Shown here piece by piece: positions 1,581 through 14,111 of a stretch of 16,567 nucleotides of DNA (the stretch's first letter is position 1; each line of letters starts with the position of its first letter). Position numbers and translations under genes: made by a program. The notes under the pieces are model-generated. The model did no database searches. It was not told the origin of the DNA and saw only the letters and a list, made by a program, of their open reading frames with translations. The stretch is from Prevotellaceae bacterium (GTDB lineage Bacteria; Bacteroidota; Bacteroidia; Bacteroidales; Bacteroidaceae): positions 1 to 16,567 of the forward strand of contig JAJPYW010000119.1 in NCBI GenBank assembly GCA_021204715.1. Reading direction: 5' to 3'.

Positions 1581-1738
1581 CAGAAATCGATTTCTGCCAG
1601 ACGCTGCCAAGCGTTTATGGAAAAGATAAAAAATCAGGTCAAAAACAGACAGGAAAATTACTTTGGAAAAAAGTGCGCGATTTGTAAGTAAAAGCGTAAA
1701 AAAACGACACGCTCCGACAAGTGCTTGGCAGAAAAAAG
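1581..1738. repeat. 16-bp palindrome and further TCTGCCA / TTGGCAGA motifs
   Basis: CAGAAATCGATTTCTG (1581-1596) is a perfect 16-bp palindrome. It runs straight into TCTGCCAGACGCTGCCAAGC, and GTGCTTGGCAGA lies in inverted orientation near 1726-1737. These share the core of the terminal repeats of the 1402-1538 palindrome, so this may be a second, more decayed copy of the same kind of element. The DNA between is AT-rich with no supported gene. Confidence 0.4.
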
Positions 1739-1818
1739 CCGGTGGAAGCAGTTCTTTAATATTGACATTATCCACTACATAACCCTTCGACTGTTGTCAT
1801 GTCACGACCGAAGCATCG

Positions 1819-2756
1819 TCACAACCGTAAACACACCATGACTATTGAAAACCCTTCGTGGGTGTATTTCAACCCACAATGGTACCCACGTTTACCATCG
1901 GCAAAGGCGTTGACAAGACTGAAAGGGTTGTAAATGTCGGGCGAAGGCCAGGTGAAATGATAACCATCGTACATGGTCTTTATTCTTTGTAAGGACTCTT
2001 CCCGGGTAATCTTCATCTTTCCCGCAATCTTGTCCACTCCTTCGGACATATAGTTGAGTATCTCCTCCCCGGTGATGCCGCAAACGGCCGAATAGGATTC
2101 AAGCATGCTGATGTTCTTGATGTTGTTCAACTCGCTGAATATGCTCATCTGTGAGAACTTCGTGATGCCGGTCATGAAACGAACCTCAAATAGGGGCCGC
2201 ACGCTTTGAGCGGGCTGTAGAAACCGCGCATCACGTTGCGCAGCTTGGGAAGGTTCTCCTCTTCGTGCGCCACGTCTAAAAGCGGGGCGTCGTATTCGTC
2301 GATCAACACCACCACCTTTTTGCCTTCCTGAAGATACGCCCTCTTAATGAGCCCATGGAGGCGCTGGTTTATCTCAAGTTCTTTTTCGTCGCGGCCGTAT
2401 ATTTGTTCGTATTGGGAAAGTTTCAGCGACAACTCGGATATAAGTATGTCACTGTCCACGTGCTTGGCTGTGCTCATGTCGAAATGCAGCACGGGATACT
2501 TCTTCCATTCCTTCTCCAACCTTTCGATGGCAAGCCCTTTGAACAACTCCTTGTCTCCCTCGAAATAGCTCTTTAATGTGGAGACAAGAAGCGACTTCCC
2601 GAAGCGGCGCGGGCGACTCAGGAATACGTAGCATAAGTCAGCGTGCGTCATTCTGTAGACATATTCTGTCTTGTCCACGTAGACGTAACCGCCCTCCCTT
2701 ATTTTGGAGAATGTCTGTGTGCCCACCGGGTAGTATTTGGTGTTTTCCTGCGCCAT
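1819..2756 (-). pseudogene. AAA-ATPase-like protein (AAA_ATPase_like/DUF1703 type), frameshifted and truncated
   Basis: From the ATG at 2756 the frame encodes a typical N-terminus (KYYPVGTQTFSKIREGGYVYVDKT), then the Walker A-like SRPRRFGKSLL and the Walker B KVVVLIDEYDAPLLD. The frame breaks after YLRFV. Continuing in the next frame gives MTGITKFSQMSIFSELNNI and YDGYHFTWPSPDIYNPFSL, both hallmarks of this family. One missing base in the A run at 2177-2179 explains the shift. Homology stops near 1891 after FADGK, and the remaining frame to the stop at 1819 looks unrelated. The C-terminal PD-(D/E)XK nuclease-like half, normally bringing the family to about 500 or more residues, is gone. These ATPases are abundant in Bacteroidales and their role is poorly known. 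This copy should be inactive. Confidence 0.85.
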
Positions 2757-2784
2757 GATTCACTTCGTCTTGTTCTTCACCCTG

Positions 2785-2792
2785 CAAACATA
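2785..2792 (-). promoter_or_regulatory. -7 box of the ATPase pseudogene
   Basis: TATGTTTG on the minus strand (2792-2785) is a perfect TAnnTTTG box 29 bases before the ATG at 2756. No good TTTG -33 element is present at the usual distance. This is therefore a weak or decayed promoter call. Confidence 0.35.
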
Positions 2793-2960
2793 AGCAATTT
2801 TTTCGGAATACAGGTCATCTGACGGGTAGATTGTAATATATGCCGCTTGCAAAAGCGCAAGTAAGATGTGGTGCATGCGTTGGTAAATAAAAAGTGGCGG
2901 TTGGATATGATTTCTTGGCGGTGTATTATTTGATAAGAAGCAGGGCAATTGTGCTCTCCA

Positions 2961-2976
2961 CTTGATTTAAATCAAG
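2961..2976. promoter_or_regulatory. FNR/CRP-type palindromic operator upstream of susC
   Basis: CTTGATTTAAATCAAG is a perfect 16-bp palindrome whose core TTGAT-N4-ATCAA equals the FNR consensus box. Its centre (2968.5) lies 45.5 bases before the predicted -33 element of the susC promoter and about 83 bases before the predicted start. The same 14-bp core recurs before the GH31 gene at 8419-8432 with almost the same spacing. The binding regulator is not encoded here; a CRP/FNR-family protein is an inference. Confidence 0.6.
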
Positions 2977-3013
2977 AATAATACGTTTCAAAGGTGATTT
3001 TGTTTGCGTTTGT

Positions 3014-3045
3014 TTTGGAATTTGTATATAAATTTTATATACTTG
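3014..3045 (+). promoter_or_regulatory. Bacteroides-type promoter of the susC-susD operon
   Basis: TTTG (3014-3017), a 20-base spacer, then TATACTTG (3038-3045), which differs by one base from TAnnTTTG. Transcription would start near 3052, leaving a leader of about 237 nt before susC. Long leaders are common for SusC genes. It lies downstream of the palindromic operator at 2961-2976. Confidence 0.55.
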
Positions 3046-3135
3046 CCTCATGTTAAACAAATGAAATTGAATTATTATCGTTTTACCTTAATTGTATGTA
3101 GTTATGAAATCTATGCACCCACCTTAGCTTTAAAA

Positions 3136-3168
3136 CTTGCGGAAGAGATTGGCACATCCCTTCGCAAG
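3136..3168 (+). other. Hairpin in the susC leader
   Basis: CTTGCGGAAG (3136-3145) pairs with CTTCGCAAG (3160-3168) apart from one bulged base, with a loop of about 14 nt. It lies inside the predicted 5' leader, about 120 nt before the susC start. No T-run follows, so it is not a terminator; a role in mRNA stability or translation control is speculative. Confidence 0.4.
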
Positions 3169-3195
3169 AGAGGAACTGTATGGTTGCATTTCATG

Positions 3196-3245
3196 CGACA
3201 ACTTCTCGCCATGGCAGTGTTCAAGCAAGCGTGCACTGCTCATTT
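3196..3245 (-). repeat. 50-bp dispersed repeat, copy 1 (inverted relative to 10732-10781)
   Basis: Its reverse complement matches 10732-10781 at 45 of 50 positions without gaps. It starts AAATGAGCAGTGCA and contains GCTTGCTTGAACACTG. GCAGTG and CACTGC inside it can pair to form a hairpin around a 14-nt loop. This copy lies in the susC leader, 43 bases before the start codon. An 83-codon frame (3004-3255) crosses it but does not look like a real protein. Confidence 0.8.
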
Positions 3246-3288
3246 AACCATCTAAAAATCTTTTATTTAAATTAAATCAGCTAATAAT

Positions 3289-6200
3289 ATGCAGCACTCT
3301 TTTAACAACCACTTTGAGGAGATGGAGAAACCTTTACGAAGCTCCTTTGGCAAGTCTCCTTTGTTGACAAGACTATGTATTTTATTTCTTGTCAGTGCAT
3401 TTGCCTCATTCTGTACAACAGGGATGTATGCGAGGCAAATCAACCCCGGCAATCAAACGACAAACAAGACGCAGCAAACCACTCCGTTGAAAGTCACCGG
3501 AAGTGTGATGGATTCCAACGGATATCCCGTTATAGGCGCAACGGTTTTAGAAAAAGGCACCACGAATGGCACCACTACCAATTTAGATGGCGAGTTCAGC
3601 ATCTCGATGAACGGCCAAGGGACTTTGGTCATTTCTTATATAGGCTACATCACCCAAGAGATTAATGTCAATAAAGACGGCCCCATCAGCGTTGTATTGG
3701 AAGAAGAGGAAGAATCGCTTGAGGAAGTGGTGGTCATTGGCTACGGAAGTATACAGAAGCGTTCTGTATCTACCGCCATCTCTACTGTAAAAGGCGGGAA
3801 GATAGCCGACATGCCTACATCCAACATATCGCAAAGCTTGGTGGGCATGTCCTCGGGTATTTCAATACAGCAAATCAGCGGCGAGCCGGGAGCGACGCCG
3901 GCCATCCGCGTCAGGGGAGCGGGCTCCATAAACAGTGGAAACGATCCTTTGTTCGTTATAGACGGCTATCCCACTACAGACGCGGAACTCTTCAACAACA
4001 TAAACCCTTCCGACATCGCCGACATTCAAATATTGAAAGACGCGGCTTCCTCGGCTATCTATGGTTCCAAGGCCGGTAATGGTGTGATTATGGTCACTAC
4101 CAAACAAGGACAAGAGGGGAAAGCGAAAGTGAGCTTCACGGCACAGGTGGGTTGGAGCGCCCCTGAACGCTACGTGGATGTACTCGAGGCCGATGATTAT
4201 TTGGACATGATTATCGAGGCGCGCCAAAACAACGGCACTATCTCGGGCTATCCCGAGCTGACACAAATGAAACAAAGCGGGAATTACTTGAACACCAACT
4301 GGCAAGACGCCATATTCCGCAACGCGCTCAATTATAGAGGCACAGCGACCGTTACGGGAGGTACCGACAAATTAAAATATAATTTCTCGGCCAATTACCA
4401 GTATGAGGACGGCATCTTGTTGAATTCATTCTATAAAAGAGTGGGCATAAAAGGCGGGTTTGAGGCCAACCTCTCGAAGGTAGTAAAGTTGGGAGCCAAT
4501 TTCAACACGACTTACAGCAAGAAGCGTGCTCAGGATCCTACCGGTGGAAACACCGACGACGTGACGGGCATCATCGCGGAGGCATTGTGTATGCCGCCCA
4601 TACTTCCCGTCTATCAAGATAACGGCGATTATACCCAGATTGCCCAGCATTATCCCGATTGGGGGCTCAACAGCCAACTTCGCAATCCTGTTACCAATTT
4701 GTTGGAGAACCGGAATGACCGATGGTCTATCCGCACCATGGCCAACGCTTATTTAGAGGTGAAGCCTGTTAAAGGTTTGACACTGCGCACATCGGTAAAT
4801 CTTACGACAGATTCGGCCAAAGAAGACTACTACCAGTCGGCCTACTTGCTTGGCTCAAGTTATACCGGCAACAAGTCGACGCCCGACTTGACCAGCATTA
4901 AAGCCTACCGTCTGTCAGGATTCGGCTATAACACCTATTGGTCGACCACCGCCACCTACGACGCCACCTTCAAAGAGAAGCATCATATCAATGCCATGAT
5001 TGGTTATGATATGGAGTACAACAACGCCTTCAGTGTGAAGCAAGAAGACCGTACCGACTCCGACAACCCGGTGGCATACGACAATACAACCATCACCAAT
5101 GTGAACGGGGCGAAACTGTGGAACGGATCTTCTGAAAACACCGACTATGTGTTCGACGCGATGTTTGCCCGCGCCATCTACGATTATAAGTACAAGTATG
5201 TTGTCTCGGCTTCCGTGCGCCGCGACCGTTCCAGCAAGTTCGGCCCCGACAAGCGCGCCGGATGGTTCTATTCGGGCTCGTTGGCATGGAACCTCACCGA
5301 AGAGAACTTCATGAAAGACATAGACTGGCTGGACATCGCCAAAGTGCGCGCAAGCTATGGCGTTACCGGCAATGACCAGATTGGTGATAATTATGCATGG
5401 ATATCCACCCTTAGTTCCAACGAGAATGTGATATTCGGCACCACGGCGATGCCCACTTATTACCCCAGCGGATATTCTAATAGGAAATTGGGATGGGAAA
5501 AGAACAAACAGATAGACGTGGGTGTCGACATAGGCGTGTTCAACAGGTTGACAGTGGAAATAGACTGGTACAAGAGAACCAGTGACATCGTGATGCCGGC
5601 CAATATTCCCAACTTCAACGGCATAGCCGGCAGCGTTTACATGAACGCCGGACAGATTGGGAACAAAGGTGTGGAAATACAAGTGTCGGCCATGCCGTTC
5701 AAGGGGAAATTCTCCTGGGACACGACAATCAGCTGGTCGAAGAACAAAAACAAGATTCTGTCGTTAGCCAATAACCAGACCTATCTTGAAAACGAATCGG
5801 CCGGAAACAAATGGAGCGATGTGATAAGGAACTATGTGGGACGGCCCATGGGCGACATGTATATGTTGAAAGTCATAGGGACGTTCAACACCGAGGAAGA
5901 CTTGAACAAATATGCCAAATACGGTACAGAGGACTTAGGCGACTTGATATTTGAGGATTACAACAACGACGGCACCATCGATGTGAACGACTATCAGTTG
6001 GTGGGCAACTACCAGCCTAATTTCACCTTCGGATGGAACAATAATTTCAAGTATAAGGATTTCGATTTGGCTGTAAACATAGACGGGCAAAGTGGAGGCA
6101 AGGTGATTTATGCGGCCGCGCGCGCTTTTACCTTGAACCGCTACGATGACAATGTGCTGAAGGAATCGGGATTAGGACGGTGGAAGTCGGCCTCTGACCC

Positions 6201-6525
6201 GGGAAACGGAAAGTCGCAAAAAGCCGGCTCGGCCAATATGAGCAGCGACATCATAGCTTCTACAAGGTATCTTTATAATGCAAGTTTCCTGCGTATCCGT
6301 AATGTGTCCTTGGGATATACATTGCCCAAAAAGTTCTGCAAGAAAATGATGATAGAGAGCCTGCGTGTGAGTGCCAATATACAGAATTTGTGGACTTTCG
6401 ACAGCTATCCCGGTTATTCTGTAGAGGCTAACTATGAAGGTAACTCGGCGATTAACAATGGTGTGGACTTTGGTGGATACCCCATCGCAAGAACATTTAC
6501 TTTTGGTCTTAATTTCAACTTTTAA
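3289..6525 (+). CDS. susC: SusC/RagA-family TonB-linked outer membrane transporter
   Basis: This 1078-residue protein should form the outer-membrane channel that imports glycan oligosaccharides using TonB energy, with SusD as its lid. After a signal region (hydrophobic LCILFLVSAFASFC, residues 29-42) comes a carboxypeptidase-regulatory-like domain (about 67-138: VTGSVMDSNGYPVIGATV, NLDGEFSI). An acidic run and the TonB box EEVVVIGYG (145-153) follow. The plug (about 157-272) has RVRGAGSIN, PLFVIDGYP and ILKDAASSAIYGSKAGNG. The rest is a beta-barrel ending FTFGLNFNF with the expected terminal Phe. Length and order are normal for the family and the frame is intact. ATG 3289 is used; ATG 3322 (MEKPLRSSF) would give a more ordinary signal peptide and is equally plausible. 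susD starts 12 bases after the stop, so the two are one operon. The substrate cannot be read from sequence. Confidence 0.97.
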   Translation: MQHSFNNHFEEMEKPLRSSFGKSPLLTRLCILFLVSAFASFCTTGMYARQINPGNQTTNKTQQTTPLKVTGSVMDSNGYPVIGATVLEKGTTNGTTTNLDGEFSISMNGQGTLVISYIGYITQEINVNKDGPISVVLEEEEESLEEVVVIGYGSIQKRSVSTAISTVKGGKIADMPTSNISQSLVGMSSGISIQQISGEPGATPAIRVRGAGSINSGNDPLFVIDGYPTTDAELFNNINPSDIADIQILKDAASSAIYGSKAGNGVIMVTTKQGQEGKAKVSFTAQVGWSAPERYVDVLEADDYLDMIIEARQNNGTISGYPELTQMKQSGNYLNTNWQDAIFRNALNYRGTATVTGGTDKLKYNFSANYQYEDGILLNSFYKRVGIKGGFEANLSKVVKLGANFNTTYSKKRAQDPTGGNTDDVTGIIAEALCMPPILPVYQDNGDYTQIAQHYPDWGLNSQLRNPVTNLLENRNDRWSIRTMANAYLEVKPVKGLTLRTSVNLTTDSAKEDYYQSAYLLGSSYTGNKSTPDLTSIKAYRLSGFGYNTYWSTTATYDATFKEKHHINAMIGYDMEYNNAFSVKQEDRTDSDNPVAYDNTTITNVNGAKLWNGSSENTDYVFDAMFARAIYDYKYKYVVSASVRRDRSSKFGPDKRAGWFYSGSLAWNLTEENFMKDIDWLDIAKVRASYGVTGNDQIGDNYAWISTLSSNENVIFGTTAMPTYYPSGYSNRKLGWEKNKQIDVGVDIGVFNRLTVEIDWYKRTSDIVMPANIPNFNGIAGSVYMNAGQIGNKGVEIQVSAMPFKGKFSWDTTISWSKNKNKILSLANNQTYLENESAGNKWSDVIRNYVGRPMGDMYMLKVIGTFNTEEDLNKYAKYGTEDLGDLIFEDYNNDGTIDVNDYQLVGNYQPNFTFGWNNNFKYKDFDLAVNIDGQSGGKVIYAAARAFTLNRYDDNVLKESGLGRWKSASDPGNGKSQKAGSANMSSDIIASTRYLYNASFLRIRNVSLGYTLPKKFCKKMMIESLRVSANIQNLWTFDSYPGYSVEANYEGNSAINNGVDFGGYPIARTFTFGLNFNF

Positions 6526-6537
6526 AACGGTTACAGC

Positions 6538-8166
6538 ATGAAAACTTTCAATAACTTGATAATATTTGCGGTCATTTCCATAACATCCATTACATATACG
6601 GCTTGTAAAAACGACTTCTTTGACCGTTATCCTTCAGATTCCATGCAAATGGAGACGTATATGCGAGATGACTCGGAGCTGCAGAATATTCTTCTGAACG
6701 GCTACTATCAACTGCAGGACCTTACATTGAACCTGATCAATGTGAACAGTGTGGCTACCGACGAGGCGTATAACTACAAAAAGAACAACGCTACGGACCG
6801 CATCAGCCTGAATGAATGTTCATGGGACGCTACTTTAAGCTTTACCAGCGACATTTGGGAAGAGTGTTTTTATATAATAAACCGTTGCAACAACGTCCTT
6901 AAGAATATAGACAACGCTTCGGAGACGAACAGGGAACAGTATGAAGGTGAGGCGTGTTTCCTGAGGGCATACGCCTATTTCACACTTGTAAGGCTGTTTG
7001 GCGCTGTGCCCATTACGACAACGCCCATTGACGACTATTCCACGCTCTACGATTATGAGCGGAACAGCGTGGACGAGGTGTACAGCCAGATAAAAGAGGA
7101 TTTGGCAAACGCGATAACCAATCTGCCCAACAGCTATTCTGCCAGCAACATGCAAGGGCGTGCCACCAAAATAGCGGCCTATACCATGCAGGCGGATGTC
7201 TTCATGACATTGCAAGATTTCAGCTCGGCAAAAACCTCTTTGGAGAATGTGATTAGTTATGCCGGCCAGAACCCGGCCGAGTTGGGATTGGAAGACGATG
7301 TATTGCAGATATATGCTTCGGACAACCCCATGGGGAAAGAGGTGATTTTCGCAGCCCAATACAACAACGGTGCCACCGTGGTGGACAATGAGCTTATGGG
7401 ACGTTGCATACCGGCCGCCGTGCCTACCGACCAACCCGCCTACGTCTATTCGGATGGAAGTTGATCCTCAATCACTGTCGCACAAGGCACCAGTTGTGTC
7501 CTGATGACGTGGGAACTTTACAATACATTCAAAGCCAACGAGAATGATCAACGTTTCCAGAAATTGGCATACAACGGGATTTACAATAATGAGTACATTT
7601 CTGTGGCAAGTGATGAGGTGGATATTACGGATGAAGGATATACTTACATGCCTACCACATTGAAATACTTTGACTTTGGCAATGAAGGTTTGATAGAGTG
7701 CGTCAGCGGCAACGACAATATCATTTACCGCTATGCCGACGTGCTGTTGATGTATGCTGAATGTTTGAATGAGACTGGCAGTGTGTCATCGGCCGCAGCG
7801 TATCTGAATATGGTAAGGACACGTGCCGGATTGGACGATACCACAGCCACCACGCAGGACGACATGAGCTTGGCCATTGAGAATGAGAGGCTGCTGGAAT
7901 TGTGTTTTGAGGGACACAGGTGGTTCGACTTGGTGCGCACGGGAAGAATCACAACAGTGATGGAGGAGCACTACGCCCATCGTACCCAGGGGCTTAATCC
8001 TTCACTCCAGTCAAGTGACAATGGCATGACGGTGAGCAATGCGACGGATACCACCGGCACGCCTTGCACTTGGAAGTGGACGGGGAAATCGGCCGCGGTG
8101 CTGTTTGGAATTCCATACGACCAGATCCAGCTTTCGAGCAACTGGACACAAAATGAGTTGTACTGA
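6538..8166 (+). pseudogene. susD: SusD/RagB-family glycan-binding lipoprotein gene with in-frame TGA
   Basis: The reading frame starts at ATG 6538 with a lipoprotein signal (TYTAC, Cys23) and contains the SusD helical repeat signature EGEACFLRAYAYFTLVRLFG (residues 137-155). At codon 309 (7462-7464) it meets TGA after AYVYSDGS. The same frame then continues, open, for 233 codons to 8166. That part has IIYRYADVLLMYAECLNE, YLNMVRTRAGL, and the usual C-terminus with IPYDQIQLSSNWTQNELY. Counting through the stop gives 541 residues, normal for SusD/RagB, so a single substitution is the simplest cause. No frameshift is needed. A 308-residue product would lack the conserved C-terminal region and probably not fold. 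TGA is used as an ordinary stop by other genes here (for example the antitoxin), so recoding is unlikely. Sequencing error remains possible. The intact protein would bind glycan at the cell surface and cap SusC. Confidence 0.9.
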
Positions 8167-8218
8167 TTTCATGAACTAAAGTACACCTGAGATGTAGTGA
8201 GTGTATAAATCAATAGAG

Positions 8219-8261
8219 GTCGCTACAGCGCTCTTTTTTGAGGCCGCTGTAGCGACTTTTA
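8219..8261 (+). terminator. Rho-independent terminator after susD
   Basis: GTCGCTACAGCG (8219-8230) pairs perfectly over 12 bp with CGCTGTAGCGAC (8245-8256). CTC and GAG can extend the stem inside the loop, and TTTT follows. It closes the susC-susD operon, so GH31 must be transcribed from its own promoter. Confidence 0.9.
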
Positions 8262-8355
8262 TATTGGCGTTTATGCTTGAGGGCGACGCCTTTGTCTCTA
8301 TCGGCTTATACAAAAGGCTGCTTTGAAGGGGATGGCGGTGCCACAGAGTGTAACC

Positions 8356-8414
8356 CCGGCAGGTGCCGGAGTAACTTTCTATCCAAGGCCGGATTATCGG
8401 AGCATGCACGCTCC
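8356..8414 (+). other. Two short GC hairpins between the susD terminator and the GH31 operator
   Basis: CCGGCAGGTGCCGG (8356-8369) and GGAGC-ATGCAC-GCTCC (8399-8414) are self-complementary. They lie upstream of the predicted GH31 promoter, so they are not part of its mRNA. A 67-codon frame across 8277-8480 has no protein-like character. Function unknown; nothing else was recognised in 8262-8418. Confidence 0.35.
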
Positions 8415-8418
8415 TTCC

Positions 8419-8432
8419 TTGATTTAAATCAA
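8419..8432. promoter_or_regulatory. FNR/CRP-type palindromic operator upstream of GH31
   Basis: TTGATTTAAATCAA is a perfect palindrome identical over 14 bases to the core of the site upstream of susC (2962-2975). Its centre (8425.5) is 44.5 bases before the predicted -33 element and about 81 bases before the predicted start, against 45.5 and about 83 at susC. That matched placement is the main argument that it is a working operator. Confidence 0.62.
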
Positions 8433-8469
8433 AAAATGGGTGTGCTTGGTAAGTTCTTTGCTGAAAGGT

Positions 8470-8500
8470 TTTGGATGTGAGATAAATCTCTGTAGATTTG
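8470..8500 (+). promoter_or_regulatory. Bacteroides-type promoter of the GH31 gene
   Basis: TTTG (8470-8473), a 19-base spacer and TAGATTTG (8493-8500) fit the TTTG-N19-TAnnTTTG consensus exactly. Transcription would start near 8507, about 75 nt before the ATG at 8582. The TTTTGGA context of its -33 box also appears at the susC promoter. Confidence 0.7.
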
Positions 8501-8581
8501 TTTATTAAATCATGCGAAAAGGGCTTGTCGGCTTGCCCTGCGGCATGATGGCAAGGTGCGTATATTTAAAAACATTATATT

Positions 8582-10288
8582 ATGAGAAAACTTATTTTAT
8601 CCGCTTTTTTTGTTATTTTGGGTGCAGGCAGCGTGCAACTGCGGGCACAGAATCAGAATCAGCCCCTTACGCCGCCACCTTTCCGTGACTTCGTCAGGGA
8701 GGACAGTATGGTAACAGCTAAAGCGGCCCTGAACCCGCCCGTTACGCCGGCGTGGGCTTTCGGGCACATCGCTTGGGAGGACAGCATCAACACGTCGGGC
8801 GCGGCCATTGCCTTGGTGGACGGTTATCTGCAACGAAACATCCCGGTGGGGGCGGTGATTATCGACAGCCCGTGGTCTACGGGGTATAATGACTTCAATT
8901 GGGACACGCGGCGGTATCCTGACCCGGTGGGGATGATTAATCATTTCAAGGATGAAAACGTGAAGGTGCTGCTGTGGCTGACGGGGGCTGTGAACATCGA
9001 GGGAAAGGACACGCCGCTGCAGAAATGCGAGGTCTATGACGAGGTGGTGGCCAAGGGCTATGCCGTGAACAACGGCGAGCCGCACAACTGGTGGAAGGGC
9101 AAGGGCGTGCACATAGACTTTACCAACAAGGAGGCTACCGAGTGGTGGTATAAACAGCTTGACAAGGTGTTCATAGACGGCGTGTATGGCTGGAAGGTGG
9201 ACCAAGGGGAATATTTCTTCGGCGATTTCATCGACACGTCGATAGGCAAGTTGAGCAACGAGCAGTTCCGCCCCTATTACTACAAGGCGATGTTTGACTA
9301 CACAGTAGGGAGGAATCCCGCCGGAATTATCATCGCCCGGCCCTACTCGCACCAAGGGGGTTATTATGCCGGCTTGGACAAGGTGCCGTTGGGCTGGTGC
9401 GGCGACTTCATGGGCGACTGGCATGGCTTGAAACTACAGATACAGAATATATATATTTCGGCCAAACGGGGCTACGGGGCGCCGGGCTGCGAGGTGGGCG
9501 GCTTTTATGTAAGCCGCGCCTCGAAAGAGCAGTTTGTGCGCTACGCCCAGTTTGGCGCGATGACGGCTTGCATGATTAACGGCGGCGAGAACGGCGCTTT
9601 TACCAACCACTTGCCATGGTGGCACGGCGAGGACGTGGCCGACATTTACCGCTATTGCGTGAAGCTGCACTACGAGTTGGTTCCTTATCTGTTCTCGACG
9701 GTGGTCGACGCGCACTTGCGGGGCGGCTCTTTGATAAAGAACGCTTCGTTTGAAGAGGAGAGCCACCAGTTGGGCGACTGCTTGTTTACCAAGGCGATAA
9801 CTTCGGAGAACAACAGCGTGGCGTTCCACCTGCCTGCCGACGGGGAGTGGTTTGATTTCTTCAGCGGAAGGCGGTATGCGGCCGGCTCGCTCGTGGAGGA
9901 GACGTATCCGTTGGAACGCTTCCCGCTCTTTGTGAAGGCGGGGGCGATTCTGCCTCTTTGCATTACGGACGATGTGACGGGCCTTGGCGACGCTTCGATG
10001 AGCGGCCGGCAGGTGGTGGTGGTTTATCCCAACGGGAACACGAGCCGGTTGTTGCACTTGCCCACGGGCGAGGGCGTGGAATACGAGGATTGCCTTGTGG
10101 GTTACGACGAGAACATAGGCGAGTTGCGCGTGGACGCCGCGGCTGCCCGCCCGTTCACGTTTATCTTGAAGGATATGCCCGAGGTGACGGACGTGAGGAA
10201 CGCCGCCGCTTGGAACTATGATGCCGGCAAACACGAACTTCGCATCGATGCCGAAGGCGACCGGTTTGATATCTGTATCAAGGAGTAG
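8582..10288 (+). CDS. Secreted GH31-family glycoside hydrolase, compact form
   Basis: This 568-residue enzyme begins with a signal peptide (MRKLILSAFFVILGAGSVQLRAQ, likely cut near residue 22) and should act in the periplasm or at the surface. The catalytic TIM barrel starts around residue 55. AVIIDSPWSTGYNDFNWD (91-108) is the typical GH31 beta-strand with the substrate-binding Asp95. KVDQGEYF holds the likely nucleophile Asp207, WCGDFMGDW the likely acid/base Asp275, and EVGGF (304-308) the conserved late-barrel loop. A beta-sandwich C-terminal domain follows (about 390-568). The N-terminal mutarotase-like domain that usually precedes the barrel appears to be missing, since only about 30 residues separate the signal from the barrel. 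GH31 members cleave alpha-glucosides, alpha-xylosides, alpha-galactosides or sulfoquinovosides; I cannot choose among these. It has its own promoter, sharing an operator with susC, and a terminator on each side. Confidence 0.9.
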   Translation: MRKLILSAFFVILGAGSVQLRAQNQNQPLTPPPFRDFVREDSMVTAKAALNPPVTPAWAFGHIAWEDSINTSGAAIALVDGYLQRNIPVGAVIIDSPWSTGYNDFNWDTRRYPDPVGMINHFKDENVKVLLWLTGAVNIEGKDTPLQKCEVYDEVVAKGYAVNNGEPHNWWKGKGVHIDFTNKEATEWWYKQLDKVFIDGVYGWKVDQGEYFFGDFIDTSIGKLSNEQFRPYYYKAMFDYTVGRNPAGIIIARPYSHQGGYYAGLDKVPLGWCGDFMGDWHGLKLQIQNIYISAKRGYGAPGCEVGGFYVSRASKEQFVRYAQFGAMTACMINGGENGAFTNHLPWWHGEDVADIYRYCVKLHYELVPYLFSTVVDAHLRGGSLIKNASFEEESHQLGDCLFTKAITSENNSVAFHLPADGEWFDFFSGRRYAAGSLVEETYPLERFPLFVKAGAILPLCITDDVTGLGDASMSGRQVVVVYPNGNTSRLLHLPTGEGVEYEDCLVGYDENIGELRVDAAAARPFTFILKDMPEVTDVRNAAAWNYDAGKHELRIDAEGDRFDICIKE

Positions 10289-11563: not shown

Positions 11564-12556
11564 TTATTCTAACCGCTGCCGGAATATCCAGTCTCTGGCG
11601 GCTTCGAGGCGGTAGATGTAGTCGAAGGAGTGCATGTGCTCGCCACCGGGATGGCCCGTGTAGCCTTCGGGCAGGACGCTGCCTTTGGTAAGGACAATGA
11701 AGTTGACGTTGTTTCCTTCGGAGAGGAGCTTCAGGGTGTTGGCTTTCTGTTCTTCTTCGGGCAACTTGGCGCTCCACTCGGCCGAGCTTATCTGCTTGCC
11801 TTCGGCTTCGAGTACTTTCCTTAAAGCGGCCATGCCGCCGCTGGCTCTCTCGTCGCCGCCGGCTACGGCGTAGATGAAGGAATCGGTGGCGAAGGAGGCC
11901 ATCTTGGTGGTGTCCCACTGGCAGCCGGCATAGAGCGAGGCGGCGAAGAACTTGGGATGGGCCACGTTGAAGTACATGGACATCATGCCGCCCATGGACT
12001 GGCCGGTGGTGTAGAGGCGTTTCGTGTCGATGGTGTACTGGGAACAGATGTATTCAACAAGGCGGATGGTCATCTCTACTTCATAGCTTGTATTGAAGTT
12101 GTCGTTCACCGTGACGGTGGTGTACTGGGGCACGACGATGAAGCAGGGGTGCTTGGCTTGTTCGGCAGCCGTGGCCCATATCACGCCGCCATAGCCTTGC
12201 GTGAGGGGAACGGTGACTTCGCGGCGGGCGGTGCTGGCGTCGCCCATGAAGAGGATGAGCGGGAACGCTGTCTTGTCGTCGTAGCTTTCGGGGATGAACA
12301 AGTTGTACTCCATGGTTTTCCCTGTTTCGGCGTCGGTGTAGGTGCACTGGATGAACTTGTTCAGGGTTTCGTCCAAGACGGCTTGCAGCGCGGCATCGGG
12401 TTGCTTGCCGGGGTTGTCGGGCATGGGACGGCCTACGCCGGGTATGGGGCCGGCGGGAACACCGGCTTCGTCAGTAGGGTTCTGGCAAATACCGTAGGAA
12501 CTTGTCAGCAGGGCGGCCAATGCCAGCCCGATGAGTTTTTGATGCTTGTTGTTCAT
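11564..12556 (-). CDS. Secreted alpha/beta-hydrolase, carboxylesterase-like
   Basis: Starting at ATG 12556 gives 330 residues beginning MNNKHQKLIGLALAALLTSS, an evident signal peptide; an in-frame ATG 72 bases upstream would bury the signal behind a basic extension and is rejected. A Pro/Gly-rich linker (residues 31-53) precedes the hydrolase core. TYTDAETGKTMEYNLFIPES and FPLILFMGDAS are typical of the PHB-depolymerase/feruloyl-esterase-like branch. The nucleophile is Ser187 in GQSMGG, Asp235 (AGGDE) is a candidate acid, and His307 or His309 (GGEHMHSF) is the base. It may remove acyl groups from plant glycans, which would suit a neighbourhood with GH31 and PL11, but the substrate is unknown. 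It is divergent from the MATE gene. Confidence 0.85.
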   Translation of the reverse strand: MNNKHQKLIGLALAALLTSSYGICQNPTDEAGVPAGPIPGVGRPMPDNPGKQPDAALQAVLDETLNKFIQCTYTDAETGKTMEYNLFIPESYDDKTAFPLILFMGDASTARREVTVPLTQGYGGVIWATAAEQAKHPCFIVVPQYTTVTVNDNFNTSYEVEMTIRLVEYICSQYTIDTKRLYTTGQSMGGMMSMYFNVAHPKFFAASLYAGCQWDTTKMASFATDSFIYAVAGGDERASGGMAALRKVLEAEGKQISSAEWSAKLPEEEQKANTLKLLSEGNNVNFIVLTKGSVLPEGYTGHPGGEHMHSFDYIYRLEAARDWIFRQRLE

Positions 12557-12597
12557 ATTATATAAATAAATTGGTTGTTTGCAGCACTTACTGTGTG

Positions 12598-12629
12598 CAA
12601 AGTACCTGAATCTCTTTTTGATTGGCAAG
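12598..12629 (-). promoter_or_regulatory. Probable promoter of the esterase gene
   Basis: On the minus strand CTTG (12629-12626), a 21-base spacer, then TACTTTG (12604-12598), one base shorter than TAnnTTTG. The start would fall near 12591, about 35 nt before the ATG. Confidence 0.45.
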
Positions 12630-12702
12630 TTTTCGGGGCGGGAAGTTTGGGATAATTAAGTATTTTAAAGAGAGCAGTCTCCTTTTTTAGTGCCTTTGTT
12701 CG

Positions 12703-12710
12703 TACCTTTG
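12703..12710 (+). promoter_or_regulatory. -7 box of the MATE gene promoter
   Basis: TACCTTTG is an exact TAnnTTTG box, 30 bases before the ATG at 12741. The -33 position holds no good TTTG. It is divergent from the esterase promoter about 75 bases away. Confidence 0.5.
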
Positions 12711-12740
12711 CACGCGTTTTGAAAATGAAACCGCTGGTGT

Positions 12741-14111
12741 ATGGCAAGTTCTAAAGAGATGACAAGTGGTGCCGCGCTGCCGCTGATTGTAAAGTTCACC
12801 CTGCCGCTCTTATTGGGCAATATATTGCAGCAGACTTATTCATTGGTGGACGCGGCGATCGTGGGAAAGTTCTTGGGGATAAACTCGCTGGCTTCGGTGG
12901 GTGCCAGCTCGTCGGTGATTTTCCTTATATTGGGTTTTTGCAACGGCTGTTGCGGCGGCTTCGCCATTCCGGTGGCGCAGAAGTTCGGGGCGAGGGACTA
13001 CAGCACCATGCGCAGCTACGTGGCGGTGGCCTTGAAGCTGACGGTGGTGATGTCGGTGGTGATTGCCTTGGTGACGGGGTTGCTTTGCATGGACATTTTG
13101 CGGCTGATGCGCACCCCGGAGAGTATATTGCAGGGGGCTTACCGGTACCTGCTTGTTATCTTCATAGGTATTCCTTGTACTTTTTTCTATAACTTGCTTT
13201 CGAGCGTTATACGCGCTTTGGGCGACAGCAAAACGCCCTTCTGGTTCCTTCTCTTCTCGACGGTGCTGAACATCTTGCTCGACTTGTTCTGCATCTTGAC
13301 GTTGGGTTGGGGCGTGGTGGGGGCGGCCGTGGCCACGGTGTTCTCGCAGGGCTTGTCGGCGGCGCTGTGTTACATTTATATGCACCGCTCGTTTGACATC
13401 TTGCGGAGCACGCCCAAGGAACGGCGGTACCGGCCGAAGCTGGCGCGGACGTTGCTTTATATCGGTGTGCCCATGGGGTTGCAGTTTTCCATCACGGCCA
13501 TAGGCAGCATCATGTTGCAGAGTGCCAACAACGCCTTGGGCACGGCGTGTGTGGCGGCTTTTACATCGGCGGTGCGCATCAAGATGTTCTTTATTTGTGT
13601 GCTCGACAGCTTGGGCATGGCCATGGCGACTTATTGCGGGCAGAACTACGGGGCGGGCAAGGTGGACCGTATATGGACGGGCGTGAAAGCGAGCGTGCTG
13701 TTGTTTATGTGTTATTCGGTTTTCTCTTTCGTGGTGCTGATGCCGGGTGCCAAGTTCTTGGCGCTGTTGTTCGTGGACAAGGGGGAGACGGAGATATTGC
13801 GCGACACGGTGCAGTTCATACACGTGGCTTGCTATTTCTTCCCGGCATTGGGGTTGTTGTCGGTGTTGCGCTACGCCATACAGGGTGTGGGGTACACGAA
13901 CTTGGCTATTTTCTCGGGGGTGTCGGAGATGATAGCGCGTATCTTGGTGAGTGTTCTTGCCGTTCCCGCCTTTGGCTTCGTCGCCGTGTGCTTCGGCGAC
14001 CCGTTGGCTTGGATAGCTGCCGACCTGTATTTGATTCCGGCGTTCTTTTTCCTTTACCGCAGGCTCAAGAGACGTATGGTGGAAAGCCGCGTGCCTGCTG
14101 TTGCCGGCTGA
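12741..14111 (+). CDS. MATE-family multidrug/cation efflux transporter
   Basis: A 456-residue, very hydrophobic inner-membrane protein with about 12 membrane helices in two similar halves, the normal size for MATE pumps. The first half has the family hallmark LPLLLGNILQQTYSLVDAAI near residues 22-41, then VGKFLGINSLASVGASSS, and NLLSSVIRALGDSKTP in the loop after helix 4. The second half repeats the pattern with GVPMGLQFSITAIGSIMLQ and NYGAGKVDRIW. It ends with a basic tail (RRLKRRM). Such pumps export cationic drugs or other small molecules in exchange for Na+ or H+. Substrate not predictable. The frame is intact and codon use is strongly G/T-rich. A long antisense frame covering it is an artefact of this composition. 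The next gene starts 118 bases downstream with its own -7 box. Confidence 0.95.
   Translation: MASSKEMTSGAALPLIVKFTLPLLLGNILQQTYSLVDAAIVGKFLGINSLASVGASSSVIFLILGFCNGCCGGFAIPVAQKFGARDYSTMRSYVAVALKLTVVMSVVIALVTGLLCMDILRLMRTPESILQGAYRYLLVIFIGIPCTFFYNLLSSVIRALGDSKTPFWFLLFSTVLNILLDLFCILTLGWGVVGAAVATVFSQGLSAALCYIYMHRSFDILRSTPKERRYRPKLARTLLYIGVPMGLQFSITAIGSIMLQSANNALGTACVAAFTSAVRIKMFFICVLDSLGMAMATYCGQNYGAGKVDRIWTGVKASVLLFMCYSVFSFVVLMPGAKFLALLFVDKGETEILRDTVQFIHVACYFFPALGLLSVLRYAIQGVGYTNLAIFSGVSEMIARILVSVLAVPAFGFVAVCFGDPLAWIAADLYLIPAFFFLYRRLKRRMVESRVPAVAG

What the first reader, a model, noticed from the sequence alone, without database searches (positions are those of the whole stretch)
2961..8500. 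Twin FNR/CRP-type palindromes at matched distance before the susC and GH31 promoters
TTGATTTAAATCAA occurs at 2962-2975 and 8419-8432, each a perfect palindrome with the TTGAT-N4-ATCAA form of the FNR box. The centre-to-(-33) distances are 45.5 and 44.5 bases, and centre-to-predicted-start distances about 83 and 81. Such agreement in two independent promoters is hard to explain by chance and fits an activator site one to two helical turns upstream of the usual class I positions. Bacteroidetes polysaccharide loci are best known for control by SusR, hybrid two-component or sigma/anti-sigma systems; none is encoded here. CRP/FNR-family regulators exist in Bacteroides (for example Cur/BT4338), so a redox- or catabolite-linked regulator joining the two transcription units is a reasonable hypothesis.
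Basis: partly seen in the sequence, partly recalled or inferred. Interest (0 to 1): 0.75.

Follow-up and report, generated by a model that had tools for sequence, protein, structure and literature searches.

The report
FNR-type switch sites in Bacteroides promoters
Two identical 14-base palindromes lie before two sugar-uptake transcription units of an uncultured Bacteroides; their sequence and spacing match a control site that recurs across the genus, some copies of it before a CRP/FNR-type regulator gene, so they are probably real regulatory sites, although no experiment has been done and that regulator gene was not found in this incomplete genome.

Summary
TTGATTTAAATCAA lies at 2962-2975 and 8419-8432 and nowhere else in the 1.74-Mb draft genome (72% complete; about 0.015 copies expected). 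Centre-to-(-7) distances are 69.5 (susC, imperfect TATACTTG) and 67.5 (GH31). In 158 genomes of the genus TTGATWTAWATCAA occurs 179 times, a same-composition palindrome 61 times. Of 141 distinct boxes fetched, 107 lie upstream of ORFs (control: 8 of 30). Distances to TAnnTTTG peak at 15-17, 28-30, 45 and 66-69; the last peak is mostly one gene (117 aa), 19 of 32 hits, one of them in the own genome. The box precedes a 194-aa CRP/FNR gene (helix TPETLSR) in 12 of the 30 best-scoring orthologue loci: the best candidate regulator, not found in this draft. Cur/BT4338 is unlikely: its box differs. Orthologues of susC (2) and GH31 (4) lack the box; one susC orthologue has an STN domain and an adjacent sigma/anti-sigma pair, so control may have changed in this lineage. 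Most likely: class I-type CRP/FNR activation at about -80. Binding, ligand and direction of control are untested.

The parts
2962..2975 (.). FNR-type palindrome TTGATTTAAATCAA before susC
3014..3017 (+). putative -33 TTTG of susC
   Evidence: consensus from PMC7366714 passage
3038..3045 (+). putative -7 TATACTTG of susC (one mismatch to TAnnTTTG)
3289..6525 (+). susC-like TonB-linked outer membrane protein, 1078 aa; no STN domain reported
6538..7464 (+). susD-like, first part (SusD-like_3), ends at an in-frame TGA
7504..8166 (+). susD-like, second part (SusD_RagB), same frame as the first
8219..8260 (+). terminator-like hairpin plus T run between susD and GH31
   Evidence: read from the sequence
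8419..8432 (.). FNR-type palindrome TTGATTTAAATCAA before GH31, followed by A-AAATG
8470..8473 (+). putative -33 TTTG of GH31
8493..8500 (+). putative -7 TAGATTTG of GH31
8582..10288 (+). GH31 glycoside hydrolase, 568 aa

Best explanation
The two palindromes are binding sites of one CRP/FNR-family dimer placed about 80 bases before the transcription starts of susC-susD and of GH31, where it would act as a class I-type activator and so co-control the two units. The best candidate is the 194-aa Bacteroides CRP/FNR protein with recognition helix TPETLSR; in part of the genomes its own gene has the same box just upstream of its -7, a position that suggests autorepression. Shown by computation: the boxes, their rarity, their spacing, recurrence of box and spacing in the genus, and the box before some regulator genes. 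Inferred: that this protein binds it, that the effect is activation, and that the organism has the protein. The ligand is unknown.
For: Rarity and exact pairing. Genus-wide: 179 boxes against 61 of a same-composition palindrome in the same 158 genomes, own draft included; 107 of 141 distinct fetched boxes within 400 bases upstream of an ORF of 60 aa or more, against 8 of 30 controls. Spacing peaks at 15-17 (11), 28-30 (29), 45 (11) and 66-69 (32) of 133 hits. The 117-aa gene has the box at 66-69 in 19 fetched sites while the spacer diverges, own contig C263 included. GH31 shares the AAATG that follows the box in 14 of these 19; only 3 of the 229 other directions have it, GH31 being one. Box before CRP/FNR genes. 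TPETLSR invariant in 15 aligned proteins, some of them near-identical; Pro and Glu at the CRP-180 and -181 positions fit a TTGA half-site by the published correlation (PMC1274295 passages; the residue match is my reading).
Against: No CRP/FNR gene found in the own draft, which is 72% complete. 18 of the 30 regulator loci inspected have no perfect box within 250 bases upstream. Orthologues of susC (2 of 2) and GH31 (4 of 4) have no perfect box in the stretches fetched. Regulator and box are only weakly linked: 49 of 73 against 10 of 25 genomes, p=0.02, but box-to-control ratios do not differ significantly, p=0.13, and genome size and completeness confound both. The 66-69 peak is mainly one family, which was found through the box; its orthologues without a box were not sought. 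The own-genome member of that family lacks AAATG, and so does the susC box. The susC -7 is imperfect and susD has an in-frame stop, so the locus may be decaying.
Confidence: 0.6

Rival explanations
1. The sites are bound by a different CRP/FNR paralogue (or another family) that shares the TTGAT half-site.
For: Many genomes have several CRP/FNR matches, up to 10 each; boxes occur in 10 of 25 genomes without a strong match to the 194-aa protein.
Against: The box was seen before the 194-aa gene and before its 47-49% relative, both with TPETLSR. Promoters of other paralogues were not inspected.
Confidence: 0.22
2. Cur (BT4338-type, Bacteroides CRP) binds the boxes, giving catabolite control.
For: Cur is the known sugar-use regulator of the genus (PMC3878776, PMC6989115 passages); a Cur-like core TGTTnTAnAACA stands between the box and the -7 in 15 of 19 promoters of the 117-aa gene.
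Against: The published Cur box TATGTTnTAnAACATA differs; best matches have 5 mismatches before susC and 3 before GH31, the latter at 8561, beyond the -7; 9 of 300 shuffles of the GH31 stretch reached 3. Two different boxes coexist in the 117-aa promoters.
Confidence: 0.04
3. The locus is controlled by SusR, HTCS or ECF sigma encoded elsewhere, and the palindromes are chance or relics.
For: An orthologous susC has an STN domain and an ECF sigma/FecR pair beside it; susD is interrupted here; the box is absent at orthologues.
Against: Two exact copies at matched spacing where 0.015 are expected; window SusC shows no STN; no 21-, 67- or 77-base direct repeat stands out (a crude test).
Confidence: 0.14

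Closest known systems
CRP/FNR family regulons with TTGAT-N4-ATCAA boxes (FNR, DNR, ANR)
   Same: Half-site, symmetry, and site positions like class II and class I of E. coli (positions recalled).
   Different: The candidate protein has no FNR-like cysteine pattern (read), and box-bearing genes here include exporters, a small probably secreted protein and a glycan locus; not a proven oxygen regulon.
Cur/BT4338 (Bacteroides CRP)
   Same: Same protein superfamily, same genus, sugar-related targets.
   Different: Recognises TATGTTnTAnAACATA (PMC3878776, PMC6989115 passages).
SusR, HTCS and ECF sigma/anti-sigma control of Bacteroides glycan loci
   Same: Same kind of target genes; an orthologous susC is next to ECF sigma/FecR.
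   Different: SusR and HTCS motifs are long-spaced direct repeats (PMC3878776 passages), not single palindromes; no such regulator among the window ORFs scanned.
HcpR and PgRsp of Bacteroidetes
   Same: CRP/FNR-type regulators of the phylum.
   Different: HcpR2 box is GTAACnnnnGTTAC (PMC1274295 passage); the find in the PgRsp paper (PMC6955866) gave no hit for TTGA, consensus or binding site.

Membership tests
CRP/FNR-type regulon (TTGAT class) | TTGAT-N4-ATCAA palindrome in promoters | tested here: met
CRP/FNR-type regulon (TTGAT class) | Consistent position relative to the promoter | tested here: met
   starts predicted only, and the 66-69 peak is dominated by one gene family
CRP/FNR-type regulon (TTGAT class) | CRP/FNR regulator encoded in the same genome | tested here: inconclusive
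   none found in the 72% complete draft
CRP/FNR-type regulon (TTGAT class) | Candidate has cNMP-binding fold and FNR-like recognition helix | tested here: met
   PF00027 above cut-off in G042 and G046, below it in G006; TPETLSR invariant in 15 aligned
CRP/FNR-type regulon (TTGAT class) | Binding of the box by the regulator | not testable with these tools
   needs an experiment
FNR proper (oxygen sensor) | Four-cysteine iron-sulfur site | tested here: not met
   read: only C81 and C85 are nearly invariant; FNR pattern recalled
Cur/BT4338 regulon | TATGTTnTAnAACATA box | tested here: not met
SusR or HTCS regulon | Direct repeats with 67/77- or about 21-base spacing | tested here: inconclusive
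   no such offset stands out, crude test
ECF sigma/anti-sigma glycan locus | STN domain on SusC and adjacent sigma/FecR | tested here: not met
   for the window; met in orthologue G042; no STN in orthologue G053

The most novel reading that the evidence does not exclude
A Bacteroides glycan-uptake locus switched from trans-envelope sigma/anti-sigma control to an undescribed genus-wide FNR-type regulon, losing the STN domain of SusC and gaining, at two promoters, the box-at-minus-80 layout of a conserved 117-aa gene.
Probability: 0.3. Interest if true: 0.65.

Novelty: new member of a known kind. Interest (0 to 1): 0.5.

Why it matters
It gives a testable regulator-site pair, separate from Cur, for many Bacteroides genomes, with predicted targets (its own gene, MATE and MFS exporters, a small probably secreted protein, some susC genes) and predicted site positions. 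It also suggests how a glycan-uptake locus can change its control system. My searches for the box in print (17 papers, judged from titles and abstract starts; 2 papers) showed none on this box in Bacteroides; PMC1274295 names both the motif and Bacteroides, but in the passages seen its Bacteroides box is a different one.

Tried and rejected
Cur as the binder: box differs. SusR/HTCS direct repeats: nothing stood out. Duplication of one promoter into the other: flanks outside the box do not align by eye. Window MATE gene at 12741, similar by eye to MATE genes that carry the box in G156 and G162 (for one of them): no box with up to 2 mismatches at 12501-12741. Footprinting of the window promoters themselves failed: orthologues have no perfect box; the single scan of named genome contigs gave 6 loci, of which only the 59% relative from a roe-deer rumen draft was checked for boxes. 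Pfam found nothing for the 117-aa protein, the 64-aa ORF in the susC leader or the 125-aa box gene. The tool's reversed-pattern control was not relied on because it contains CTA/TAG words, rare in bacteria (recalled); a same-composition palindrome was used instead.

Rows dropped: order-level relatives were left out of the positional counts; boxes identical in 25 bases on each side were counted once; of 179 boxes, 141 distinct ones were analysed; of 61 controls, 30, one per genome. One script match to the 117-aa family (L242) is false by its peptide, so 20 and one search is given here as 19. Promoters of 117-aa orthologues without the box were not sought. In one search one Fisher test drops five genomes after the fact. 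No structure was predicted.

Full report
What is there. TTGATTTAAATCAA is at 2962-2975 and 8419-8432. Among the genes are an AAA-ATPase-like ORF (minus strand), susC, a susD in two same-frame pieces, GH31 as a separate unit, an esterase-like ORF (minus strand), a MATE exporter, an M24 peptidase and a rhamnogalacturonan-lyase-like ORF. In the own draft genome the 14-mer occurs only at these two places and TTGATN4ATCAA at six. About 0.015 exact copies are expected in 1.74 Mb.

Spacing. From box centre to the -33 TTTG: 45.5 and 44.5. To the first T of the -7: 69.5 (susC, TATACTTG) and 67.5 (GH31, TAGATTTG) (coordinates). The -7/-33 consensus is that quoted in PMC7366714 (passage). If the start lies about 11-13 bases beyond that T (my estimate), the sites lie near -80; E. 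coli class I positions (-61.5, -71.5, -82.5) and class II (-41.5) are recalled, not looked up.

The box in relatives. 20 of 118 relatives have the exact 14-mer (21 of 119 with the own genome). TTGATWTAWATCAA is in 87 of 158 genus genomes, own included, at 179 places. The same-composition palindrome ATTGAWTAWTCAAT is in 40 of 158, at 61 places. Of 141 distinct boxes fetched, 17 are inside ORFs of 100 aa or more and 107 lie within 400 bases upstream of an ORF of 60 aa or more; of 30 controls, 20 and 8.

Positional classes. Around 124 intergenic boxes (248 directions) there are 133 TAnnTTTG within 160 bases: 11 at 15-17, 29 at 28-30, 11 at 45, 32 at 66-69. Around 10 intergenic controls (20 directions) there are 5, none at 28-30, 45 or 66-69; two of the 5 are at 16. 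The clusters show that 10 of the 11 at 15-17 are regulator genes and all 11 at 45 are one MFS exporter; 28-30 covers several families, among them MATE exporters, a weakly YiiX-like protein, a glyoxalase-family protein and two regulator genes (families). Of the 32 at 66-69, 19 are the 117-aa gene, 3 a 125-aa gene without a Pfam hit, 1 a thioredoxin-like gene and 1 the window GH31; the rest have no clear gene. So the classes are real but are not many independent events.

A promoter with the window's layout. The 117-aa gene (probably secreted, from its N-terminus by eye) carries the box at 66-69 in 19 fetched sites, with a diverged spacer and in 15 of 19 a Cur-like core TGTTnTAnAACA after the box. 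One of the 19 is in the own genome, contig C263. After the box 14 of 19 have AAATG at positions +2 to +6; of the 229 other directions 3 have it, among them the GH31 box (A-AAATG). The own-genome member has AAAAA instead, and the susC box has AATAA. These promoters were found through the box; orthologues without it were not sought.

Candidate regulator. The box stands before a short CRP/FNR gene in G006, G042 and G046. Of the 30 best-scoring loci from 99 genomes, 12 have a perfect TTGATN4ATCAA within 250 bases upstream and 8 one within 250 bases downstream; 18 have no perfect one upstream. The 12 include close relatives and are not independent. A match at E<=0.001 is in 87 of 99 genomes, paralogues included; by my reading of that list 70 have an orthologue (61% identity or more) and 3 a relative of 49-52% (used). 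The recognition helix TPETLSR is invariant in 15 aligned rows, some near-identical. The only solved structure found by sequence is 3dn7, E=1e-15. PMC1274295 (passages) links residues 180 and 181 to bases 3 and 6 of the half-site; a non-Arg at 180 with Glu at 181 fits TTGA. The own draft gave no PF00027 hit, no hit for the protein and none for the alignment; at 72% completeness this is inconclusive.

Test of linkage. 49 of 73 genomes with the regulator have a box, against 10 of 25 without (p=0.02; 0.004 when five genomes are dropped after the fact). Box-to-control ratios, 98:22 against 30:13, do not differ significantly (p=0.13). This is weak.

Orthologues of the window locus. GH31: G056 73%, G145 62%, G010 55% and a roe-deer rumen draft 59%; susC: G042 80%, G053 79%. 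None has a perfect box in the stretch fetched. In G042 susC has an STN domain and follows an ECF sigma factor and a FecR. G053 SusC has no STN; of the two ORFs next upstream one is an OmpA-like porin and one has no Pfam hit, and the box is absent there too. The window SusC shows no STN. So STN loss does not by itself bring the box; rewiring in the window lineage is suggested, but three lineages are few.

Against Cur. The published Cur box is TATGTTnTAnAACATA (passages of PMC3878776 and PMC6989115). Neither window box is accompanied by one; the nearest match has 3 mismatches at 8561, in the GH31 leader. Published SusR and HTCS motifs are direct repeats; one search shows nothing notable at those spacings.

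Papers. PMC3878776, PMC12596196, PMC6989115, PMC1274295, PMC12040651, PMC6955866 and PMC7366714 were seen as passages only; others as search listings. I did not recognise the 194-aa regulator or this box for Bacteroides in them (searches); locus tags of the regulator are unknown to me, so a paper naming it by tag could be missed.

Verdict. A real, well-placed pair of FNR-type sites, most likely part of an undescribed CRP/FNR regulon of Bacteroides. Binding, ligand, direction of control and presence of the regulator in this organism remain to be shown.

Noticed in passing
window 7462-7464: In-frame TGA splits susD (308 aa plus 220 aa, same frame); G042 and G053 orthologues are 542 aa without it. 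Decay, assembly error or other cause unknown.
   Followed up: partly
L234 (G042:C110) 1600-6821: Orthologous susC carries an STN domain and is preceded by an ECF sigma factor and FecR, which the window lacks.
   Followed up: partly
L026 (G000:C263) around 1501: Promoter of a conserved 117-aa protein without a Pfam hit has an FNR-type box at 68 and a Cur-like box nearer the -7; similar layout in many relatives.
   Followed up: partly
L036 and L040: Regulator gene neighbourhood: a weakly YiiX-like protein downstream, with its own box in 5 fetched sites; in L040 a MATE exporter lies upstream of the regulator.
   Followed up: partly
L030, L164, L171: Another susC family has the box 67-68 bases before its start codon, divergent from an aldose-epimerase-family gene in L030 and a similar one, by eye, in L171.
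   Followed up: no
window 1819-2756, minus strand: AAA-ATPase-like (PF09820) gene looks broken into two overlapping ORFs; only the 194-aa one was scanned.
   Followed up: no
window about 1095-1220: Degenerate tandem copies of GATGAGGGTGTCATCTCTGTGAA, seen by eye.
   Followed up: no
window 3061-3255: 64-aa ORF in the susC leader, no Pfam hit.
   Followed up: partly
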